Shown here piece by piece: positions 9,286 through 18,114 of a stretch of DNA of 18,114 nucleotides. Every line of letters begins with the position of its first letter. Position 1 is the first letter of the stretch. Below the pieces are notes generated by a model. That model was not told where the DNA came from and made no database searches. It saw nothing but the letters and a program-made list of their open reading frames with translations. A program made the translations under genes and the position numbers. Source of the DNA: Monoraphidium neglectum. Its lineage: Eukaryota > Chlorophyta > Chlorophyceae > Sphaeropleales > Selenastraceae. The stretch lies in contig NW_014013175.1 of NCBI RefSeq assembly GCF_000611645.1, forward strand, positions 1 through 18,114, read 5' to 3'.

Positions 9286-10621
9286 ATGCTCGCCTCCTCG
9301 ATGTCTGGGCTAGTGCCAGGTGTCTTGCGCATGGCCTGCAGCCAGGCAGCAGCGGCTCAAGCAGTTGCAGCAAGGCGGGCGTTTGCTGCGGACGCCGGTG
9401 CGTCTTATGAGGGCGCTGTAGAATAGCGGATTGGCGGCTCGTCATCATGAAAGATGTCCTGGCTCCAGCAGCTGCGAAGGTGTACAACACAGGCTCGTGC
9501 GTGGCCGCATGCAGGCGGCGAAGCACACCAGCCAATGAGCCAGATTACAAGGTCCATCCCTATCAACCCCACCTCGCCATGCGCAGCAGGCTCCTTAGTC
9601 AAGGACGTCGAGAGCGACGCCGACTTTGAGAGCGAGATCAAGCAGCTTGCGCGTGAGCCCTCTGCAAACAACACAAGCAACTTTGCTTTGCAGCGCACTT
9701 CCCCTGCCTGCATGATCTATGCGCCCCATCGCAGAAAGTATCAGCCCATGGCGCGCGCAGCTGGCTCCCGTCCCGCGTCTGCAGCACCAGCACAAAACAA
9801 AACGCCCGTCATGAGCGCTGTCCGCATGCCCCGCATGCATTCCGCACCCTGCGCCCCTCCCAGAGACTGGCGCGGTGGGCGTTGTGGACTTCACCGCGAA
9901 GTGGTGCGGGCCCTGCAGGGCGGTGGCGCCGATTTACGAGGCCCTCAGCAAAGAGTACCCCAACGTAGGCTGAGTTTTGAGGGGCCCGACATGACCAGGC
10001 GGGGCTTGAGGGTGGAGGGGTGTGTGGAGGGCAGCGGCCGTGCTATGTCTCGACGCCTGCACGCTGACGCAGCTGGTGCCTGCTGGCGCCTGAGCGCCGC
10101 TACGATACCGCGAGCTCAGGCGGACTCCGGCATCTGGGGTCGCGCCCAGCCGCAGCCCTGGACCGCCCGGCCGGCCGGCTGCCGGCCTTTGCTGACTGCC
10201 CGAACGCACACGTCATGCGTGCACCATCTGTTCACTGTCAGGCGCGGTTTCTCAAGGTGGACATCGACAACGAGCAGCTGCAGCGCACAGTCATGGACCA
10301 TGGCATCACAGGAGTGGTGGGCACTCGTGTTGAGGGGTGTTGGGTCACTAAGGCAGCGGCGTTGACCACGGCTCAGTAGGCGCAGACCTCACCTGCGGCA
10401 CGCCGCAAGTTTGTTGATGTCCCTGCTTGCCTGGGCGCAGTTTTGTCAGCAGCCTTCGCAGGAATCATCTGGACCGCGGGCTTCGCCGATTGACCCTGCG
10501 TCCCGCTTGTGCACCGCAGCCGACGTTTGCCTTCTACAAGGGGCGGCAGCGCGCTGAGTCCTTCACGGGGGCGCGGGTCGACCTGCTCAAGGACACAATC
10601 AAGAAGCTGGCCGGCAGCTGA
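9286..10621 (+). CDS. TRXo: Mitochondrial o-type thioredoxin, 5 exons
   Basis: A small disulfide reductase. Exons are 9286-9397, 9590-9652, 9864-9964, 10242-10316 and 10520-10621; phases agree and give 150 aa. Residues 1-37 form a presequence: Ala-rich, with Arg15, Arg30 and Arg31, no acidic residue until Asp36, and a plausible cleavage zone at RRAFAADAG, which points to the mitochondrial matrix. The thioredoxin fold begins [16 protein letters not shown]; the active site WCGPC is at residues 72-76 (bases 9902-9916) after VGVVDFTAK, followed by [35 protein letters not shown] and the cis-Pro motif PTFAFYKG, with Val-Pro split by intron 4. It ends in an amphipathic helix, [13 protein letters not shown]. 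Thioredoxin identity is certain; the o-type call rests on the presequence. An alternative start at ATG 9535 would give a cytosolic-looking N-terminus, but the spliced exon 1 fits better. Confidence 0.9.
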
Positions 10622-11166: not shown

Positions 11167-11169
11167 GAT
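11167..11169. repeat. Left copy of the 3-bp target-site duplication (GAT)
   Basis: GAT directly precedes the CACTGCAAGAA terminus and is matched by GAT at 12078-12080 directly after TTCTTGCAGTG. A 3-bp duplication is the length made by CACTA-type transposases. Three bases can match by chance (1 in 64), so this supports the element call but does not prove it. Confidence 0.55.
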
Positions 11170-11541
11170 CACTGCAAGAACAGGGGTTCTCCTCAGACAC
11201 TCCTCAAGATCCTCCTTATCTGTGGGCCAAGGAGTCTGCAAGGAGACTGTAAGGAGGAGGCCTCCCTGCTAATATCATTGTGGCTAAGGAGTGAAATGGA
11301 GCCGGTAAGGAGTTGATAAGGAAGTGGCCTTACAACGGGCAGCCTCTTGACTGTTTCCATCTATGAATATTAGTATCATGCATCTAAAGTACATGCATTG
11401 ATGAAGGTGCATTGCGCACTCACATTTGGTGCGGTTGGCACACCACGGCGCCTGCATGCTGACTGCGTGCCTGGCAGTTTGCTCAATTGCCAGGCGTGCA
11501 TGCAGCAGCAGGTTGTGAAATGTGACAACCAAAATCATGAA
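11170..11541 (+). repeat. Left terminal inverted repeat arm
   Basis: Runs from CACTGCAAGAACAGGGG inwards to about TCATGAA and pairs with 11702-12077. The pairing is perfect from 11170 to 11335, followed by scattered mismatches, all transitions by my count. It contains a smaller palindrome, GCCTGGCA...TGCCAGGC, at about 11468-11495. Confidence 0.9.
11212..11323 (+). promoter_or_regulatory. Subterminal AAGGAG motif cluster (left arm)
   Basis: AAGGAG occurs at 11229, 11240, 11251, 11286 and 11307, with AAGGAA at 11318 and the reverse form CTCCTT at 11212. Three gaps are exactly 11 bp, about one helical turn. The cluster is mirrored in the right arm. In CACTA elements such subterminal repeats bind the element-encoded TNPA-like protein; that function is inferred here by analogy. 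Confidence 0.6.
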
Positions 11542-11701
11542 ATTAAACCGCCTTGCACCCATCCGCCAGTGTCATGCAGGGGTGACACCTTCAACAATGA
11601 AACACTGCACAGCAGTTGCATCTAGCATGCTTGAGTATGTACCCTGGTTGTACAATCTTAAGCACATGCAATGCGGCTTTGCTTCCTTCTGATGCATCAT
11701 T

Positions 11702-12077
11702 TTCATGACTTTGGTCGTCACATTTCACAACCTGCTAGCTGCTGCACGCACGCCTGGCAATTGAGCAAACTGCCAGGCACGCAGTCAGCATGCAGGCGCC
11801 GTGGTGTGCCAACCGCACCAAATGTGAGTGCGCAATGCACCTTCATCAATGCATGTACTTTAGATGCATGATACTAATACTTATAGATGGAAACAGTCAA
11901 GAGGCTGCCCATTGTAAGGCCACTTCCTTATCAACTCCTTACCGGCTCCATTTCACTCCTTAGCCACAATGATATTAGCAGGGAGGCCTCCTCCTTACAG
12001 TCTCCTTGCAGACTCCTTGGCCCACAGATAAGGAGGATCTTGAGGAGTGTCTGAGGAGAACCCCTGTTCTTGCAGTG
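11702..12077 (-). repeat. Right terminal inverted repeat arm
   Basis: The reverse complement of the left arm with a 4-bp insertion around 11745 (AGCTAGCTG-like context against a plain GCTGCTG) and six substitutions. It ends TTCTTGCAGTG at 12077. Confidence 0.9.
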
Positions 12078-12080
12078 GAT
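12078..12080. repeat. Right copy of the 3-bp target-site duplication (GAT)
   Basis: GAT directly follows the right terminus, TTCTTGCAGTG, and matches 11167-11169. Confidence 0.55.

Positions 12081-12767: not shown

Positions 12768-18114
<5,347 letters not shown>

What the first reader, a model, noticed from the sequence alone, without database searches (positions are those of the whole stretch)
11167..12080. Fold-back CACTA-like transposon with near-identical ~370-bp arms
Seen: inverted arms 11170-11541 and 11702-12077, CACTGC/GCAGTG ends, flanking GAT duplication, no transposase. The mix of CACTA-type ends and 3-bp duplication with very long inverted repeats is not the classic CACTA layout (short terminal repeats). 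The outer 166 bp of the arms are identical, which suggests recent origin or ongoing gene conversion. It may be an unnamed algal fold-back family.
Basis: partly seen in the sequence, partly recalled or inferred. Interest (0 to 1): 0.8.

Follow-up and report, generated by a model that had tools for sequence, protein, structure and literature searches.

The report
Fold-back CACTA-type transposon in green alga
A 908-base stretch in a green alga's genome is a gene-less jumping-DNA element whose two halves are near mirror images; its ends and target duplication look like the known CACTA transposons, but its mirrored arms are much longer than is usual for them.

Summary
In detail: a 908-bp element (11170-12077) with inverted arms of 373/377 bp (97.3% identical; 4 substitutions in the outer 340, none in the outer 166), a 158-bp loop, CACTGC/GCAGTG ends and a GAT duplication. 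The search of its genome found four decayed relatives of a single arm (68-85% identity) and a second element family with a similar end. One member, 2257 bp on contig C1464, has both ends, ~40-bp terminal repeats and its own 3-bp duplication, CTT. The 26-bp end pattern occurs 8 times in 34.6 Mb (reversed control 0), each at an end of these elements. Ends, 3-bp duplication and subterminal AAGGAG repeats are textbook CACTA/EnSpm, so the layout is not mixed; only arm length is unusual. Best reading: a non-autonomous CACTA-type element whose one end was copied in inverse orientation. The arms resemble each other far more than any copy found, so the copying is younger than the family. No transposase was found, but that test was weak. 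No empty allele could be compared. Gene conversion is not needed to explain the identical outer 166 bp (P = 0.07).

The parts
11167..11169 (.). left copy of the 3-bp target-site duplication, GAT
   Evidence: sequence
11170..11542 (+). left arm (long terminal inverted repeat), begins CACTGCAAGAACAGGGG
   Evidence: pairs with 11701-12077, 377 columns, 97.3%
11170..11335 (+). outer 166 bp of the left arm, identical to the right arm (11912-12077)
11189..11324 (+). subterminal zone with repeated AAGGAG/CTCCT-type motifs (AAGGAG 5 times in the arm against a mean of 0.13 in 2000 mononucleotide shuffles of the arm)
11543..11700 (.). 158-bp loop, no other copy found in the genome
   Evidence: search with 11510-11737 finds only this locus and its own arms
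11701..12077 (-). right arm, ends CCCCTGTTCTTGCAGTG
12078..12080 (.). right copy of the target-site duplication, GAT
   Evidence: sequence

Best explanation
It is a non-autonomous DNA transposon of the CACTA (EnSpm) type, in fold-back form. Shown: precise CACTG..CAGTG ends, a 3-bp duplication, dense subterminal repeats, relatives with the same or a similar end elsewhere in the genome, no recognisable coding frame. Inferred: a CACTA-type transposase made elsewhere binds the repeated AAGGAG motifs, cuts at CACTG and inserts the element with a 3-bp stagger. Inferred: the ancestor had one such ~370-bp end and a different other end, as in the related C1464 element, where only ~40 bp are shared between the ends. 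An inverted duplication of that end (for instance by template switching during repair after excision) replaced the interior and the other end. This happened either before this insertion, so that a left-left element jumped, or in place inside an older insertion.
For: Ends and GAT/GAT. The related element C1464:4391-6647 has the same 26-bp end on both sides and CTT/CTT outside, an independent 3-bp duplication. 8 of 8 genome sites of the 26-base end pattern (up to 3 mismatches) are ends of these elements or relics; reversed control 0. The bases outside the CACTG look unrelated by eye among 11 ends listed. AAGGAG is enriched in the arm. CACTA definition in plants with CACTA or CACTG ends, TIRs mostly under 50 bp and 3-bp TSD: PMC10741241 passage; subterminal repeats: PMC8978399 passage; an active CACTG-ended CACTA element of a fungus, CNIRT6: PMC12810828 passage. 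Recent inverted copying: arms are 99% alike over 340 bp, while the longest well-preserved other copy (C376) is 81%, and both arms share a 4-bp stretch absent from C376 and C786. Precedent: a Galileo copy whose TIR grew because an internal region was duplicated and inverted (PMC3573991 passage).
Against: No transposase was found: Pfam Transposase_21, KDZ and Transpos_assoc gave 0 matches in the genome, though 0 of 14 control genomes rang either, so absence is not shown. 4 frames of the C1464 element also lack a Pfam match above cut-off (one weak Hydrophobin_2 match, E 0.03). Only one two-armed copy was found, so the fold-back form has not been seen to multiply. A TIR of 373 bp is far outside the usual CACTA range. 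The one-armed relics could also be two-armed elements that lost an arm. Neither an empty site nor an ancestral left-right element of this family was found.
Confidence: 0.72

Rival explanations
1. An old fold-back family with two long arms from the start, kept alike by arm-to-arm gene conversion; the one-armed copies lost an arm because long palindromes are unstable.
For: Arms are far more alike than copies of the family; the C786 relic covers the arm nearly to its inner boundary, element positions 21-366; the inner ~35 bp next to the loop are more diverged than the rest.
Against: 0 of 4 other arm-bearing loci has a second arm; the related element C1464 has different subterminal regions at its two ends; the run of 166 identical bases is not exceptional (P = 0.067), though this does not exclude conversion.
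Confidence: 0.15
2. A local inverted duplication or assembly artefact around a one-armed relic, not a mobile unit; the GAT match is chance.
For: All 4 other arm copies found are one-armed; a 3-bp match has probability 0.018, which is not negligible; the assembly is fragmented (1632 contigs).
Against: Pairing stops exactly at CACTGC on both sides, the same boundary as in 9 other ends with different flanks; the related two-ended element also has a perfect 3-bp duplication, so both by chance is about 3e-4 (0.018 squared); the arms carry arm-specific differences and enclose a unique loop.
Confidence: 0.08
3. A fold-back of the Mutator or PIF/Harbinger superfamily.
For: Most fold-backs seem to belong to Mutator (PMC4079207 passage) and Mutator TIRs can exceed 300 bp (PMC10741241 passage); PIF/Harbinger makes 3-bp duplications (PMC2213677, start of abstract in the listing).
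Against: The duplication is 3 bp, not the 7-12 bp of Mutator (passage). The duplications here are GAT and CTT, not the TAA/TTA that PIF/Harbinger prefers, and CACTG ends do not fit it (preference and end types recalled, from no call). No transposase of either kind was searched for.
Confidence: 0.05

Closest known systems
CACTA / EnSpm transposons (En/Spm type)
   Same: CACTG..CAGTG ends, 3-bp target duplication, subterminal zone of short repeats (PMC10741241, PMC8978399 passages)
   Different: TIR is 373/377 bp instead of mostly under 50 bp (passage; 5-8 bp in the grapevine rows seen in the PMC2528002 passage); element is 908 bp with no genes; no transposase located
Galileo copies made of two TIRs (P superfamily, Drosophila)
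   Same: Two long arms and little else; TIR growth by inverted duplication of internal sequence is described there (PMC3573991 passage); several transposase-binding sites in the long TIRs (PMC3688188 passage)
   Different: Different superfamily; 7-bp sequences at the borders there (passage); TIR 18-1250 bp
Tetris, a Foldback element of Drosophila virilis
   Same: Long inverted arms, non-autonomous, ends shared with a shorter element type, no transposase found (PMC4079207 passages)
   Different: 8-10 bp duplications and ~220-bp internal repeats in the arms there; its authors suggest Mutator
C1464 element of the same genome (L040:3392-5648)
   Same: 16-bp end identical apart from one base, 3-bp duplication, AAGGA-type repeats near the ends
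   Different: 2257 bp, ~40-bp TIR (90%), ends differ beyond that

Membership tests
CACTA (EnSpm) superfamily | termini CACTA or CACTG / TAGTG or CAGTG | tested here: met
   CACTGC...GCAGTG
CACTA (EnSpm) superfamily | 3-bp target-site duplication | tested here: met
   GAT/GAT here, CTT/CTT in the related C1464 element: 2 of 2 two-ended elements found
CACTA (EnSpm) superfamily | subterminal repeats in direct and inverted orientation | tested here: met
   AAGGAG 5 times and CTCCTT once in the arm; shuffle means 0.13 and 0.06. The motif is 6 bp, shorter than the 10-20 bp units described for plant elements (PMC8978399 passage)
CACTA (EnSpm) superfamily | short TIRs, mostly under 50 bp | tested here: not met
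   373/377 bp here; the source says 'mostly' (PMC10741241 passage), so a usual trait, not an exclusive one; the related C1464 element meets it (~40 bp)
CACTA (EnSpm) superfamily | DDE transposase of the Tnp2 / Transposase_21 type in an autonomous partner | tested here: inconclusive
   PF02992 and PF13963: 0 matches in G000, and 0 of 14 control genomes rang; RVT_1 was found in G000 by the same tool, 4 matches, with 3 of 14 controls ringing
Mutator fold-backs | 7-12 bp target duplication | tested here: not met
   duplication is exactly 3 bp
Fold-back form (structural class) | long inverted arms around a short middle, no transposase gene inside | tested here: met

The most novel reading that the evidence does not exclude
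An end-symmetric CACTA element: two copies of the same (left) end suffice for a CACTA-type transposase to excise and insert DNA, so the usual difference between the two ends of CACTA elements is dispensable in this algal lineage, and fold-backs arise in the CACTA superfamily by end duplication as in Galileo.
Probability: 0.3. Interest if true: 0.45.

Novelty: new variant of a known kind. Interest (0 to 1): 0.3.

Why it matters
It adds a probable CACTA-type case to the superfamilies in which fold-back elements have evolved, from a little-studied green algal lineage, together with a conventional two-ended relative in the same genome. If the left-left element did jump, it is a natural experiment on whether a CACTA transposase needs two different ends. 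A near-perfect hairpin of about 370 bp between two genes is also a plausible source of small RNA and of rearrangements; neither was tested.

Tried and rejected
Transposase search: PF02992, PF18758 and PF13963 gave 0 matches, with 0 of 14 controls ringing, so absence is not shown; RVT_1 as a check that the tool finds mobile-element proteins in this genome did ring, 4 matches. Interior of the C786 relic as a guide to the ancestor: 1001 bp searched, only the arm part matches elsewhere. Loop as a guide: no other copy. Rfam: 0 matches in the window at gathering thresholds. Phage records: no match. The loose 16-base end pattern with 3 mismatches gave 494 sites against 218 in the reversed control and was too loose to count; the 26-base pattern replaced it. 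Second ends on the relics: a scan of about 9.9 kb of each of C54, C151, C345, C1165 and C594 found one good end each (0-5 mismatches in 23) and no second candidate with fewer than 8 mismatches; the insides of the first four were also read by eye over 240-2860 bp. Paper searches on CACTA with fold-back, long TIRs or algae showed no CACTA-type fold-back in the titles and abstract starts listed; several lists were capped and I saw passages of only 8 papers, so this does not show that none is in print.

Full report
Setting. The window is the whole contig C439 of genome G000, 34.6 Mb in 1632 contigs. A 720-aa protein from another contig of the same genome (C151) matched 5 proteins: one identical and two further ones marked only 'jgi', and two named ones from the green alga Monoraphidium neglectum (62% identity over 54% of the query, 56% over 59%). 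So the host is a green alga, probably related to Monoraphidium. The element lies between a thioredoxin gene and an ABC transporter gene. The thioredoxin exon at 9815-9970 matches Pfam; that its last coding frame ends at 10621 is read by eye, and that fragment alone has no Pfam match. The ATP-binding part of the transporter is at 17362-17796; its first exon was not located. The element is therefore probably intergenic.

Observation. The arms are 11170-11542 and 11701-12077, 377 alignment columns, 97.3% identical, with a 158-bp loop. The outer 340 bp hold four substitutions, at arm positions 167, 196, 198 and 331; a 4-bp indel and two substitutions follow in the inner part. The folding energy is about 60 standard deviations below 20 shuffles. 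The pairing ends at CACTGC on both sides and is flanked by GAT on both sides. None of the 19 open frames of 45 aa or more that overlap the element has a Pfam match.

Relatives in the genome. One arm finds four other places: C376 (81%, 333 bp, end intact), C1239 (78%, 148 bp), C786 (68-70%, about 350 bp, end decayed) and C676 (85%, 74 bp at the end only). In none of the four does a second arm lie within the 7.9-9.9 kb fetched around it. Searching with the C376 arm adds no new place. The DNA search states that its counts are lower bounds.

A second family with a similar end. The end pattern led to C1464:4391-6647, 2257 bp, whose two ends share about 40 bp (90%) and which is flanked by CTT on both sides. 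One-ended relatives lie on C151, C345, C1165 and C54, and one without the end on C320; a right-end relative lies on C594. A 26-base end pattern with up to three mismatches has eight sites in the genome: two in the window element, two in C1464, one each in C376, C54, C151 and C345; the reversed pattern has none. Eleven ends listed from the CACTG onward are alike, and the 15 bases before it look unrelated by eye. Both families carry several AAGGA/TCCTT-type repeats within about 150 bases of their ends.

Mechanism. CACTA elements of plants are described by CACTA or CACTG ends, mostly short TIRs and 3-bp duplications (PMC10741241 passage; PMC4158355 passage), with subterminal repeats (PMC8978399 passage). 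All but the short TIR are met. The simplest history is that one end of a normal element was copied in inverse orientation. The two arms are about 99% alike over 340 bp, whereas the C376 copy is 81%, and both arms share a 4-bp stretch that C376 and C786 lack; so the copying is younger than the split of the copies. Some differences arose in each arm afterwards: at position 331 the left arm departs from C376 and C786, and the 4-bp insertion is in the right arm, judged on C786 alone (read by eye). Inverted duplication lengthening a TIR is described for Galileo (PMC3573991 passage). Two orders of events remain open: copying first and then insertion of a left-left element, or insertion of a normal element and copying in place.

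What counts against this reading. No transposase was found, although the test was weak. Only one two-armed copy was found. The TIR length is outside the usual CACTA range. The left flank has no second copy in the assembly, so no empty allele was seen.

Verdict. A real, probably young, non-autonomous CACTA-type element in fold-back form: an unusual variant of a well-known kind, of modest interest.

Noticed in passing
window 11470-11494 (and mirrored in the right arm): A small palindrome CCTGGCA..TGCCAGG sits inside each arm and is kept in the C376 relic and partly in C786 (by eye); it may be a protein-binding site or a nested hairpin.
   Followed up: partly
L049:3390-3431 (contig C676): A 42-bp palindrome (90% self-complementary) lies 13 bp from the 74-bp end relic.
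   Followed up: no
L041:4949-5034 (contig C54): An 86-bp end fragment is flanked by a longer direct match (GCCTGC on both sides, by eye), possibly a truncated insertion at microhomology.
   Followed up: no
G000:C54:12114-12593: Reverse transcriptase domain in a 1584-aa open frame without stops, so a possibly intact retroelement.
   Followed up: no
L052:5455-5823 and L043:1013-1395: An 83% identical DNA stretch shared by two contigs, overlapping an open frame at L052:5167-5694 that has no Pfam match.
   Followed up: partly
window 13261-13318 and 17517-17592: A GC-rich tandem repeat of two 29-bp units, and a CAG run of about 25 units just upstream of the ATP-binding part of the ABC transporter.
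   Followed up: no
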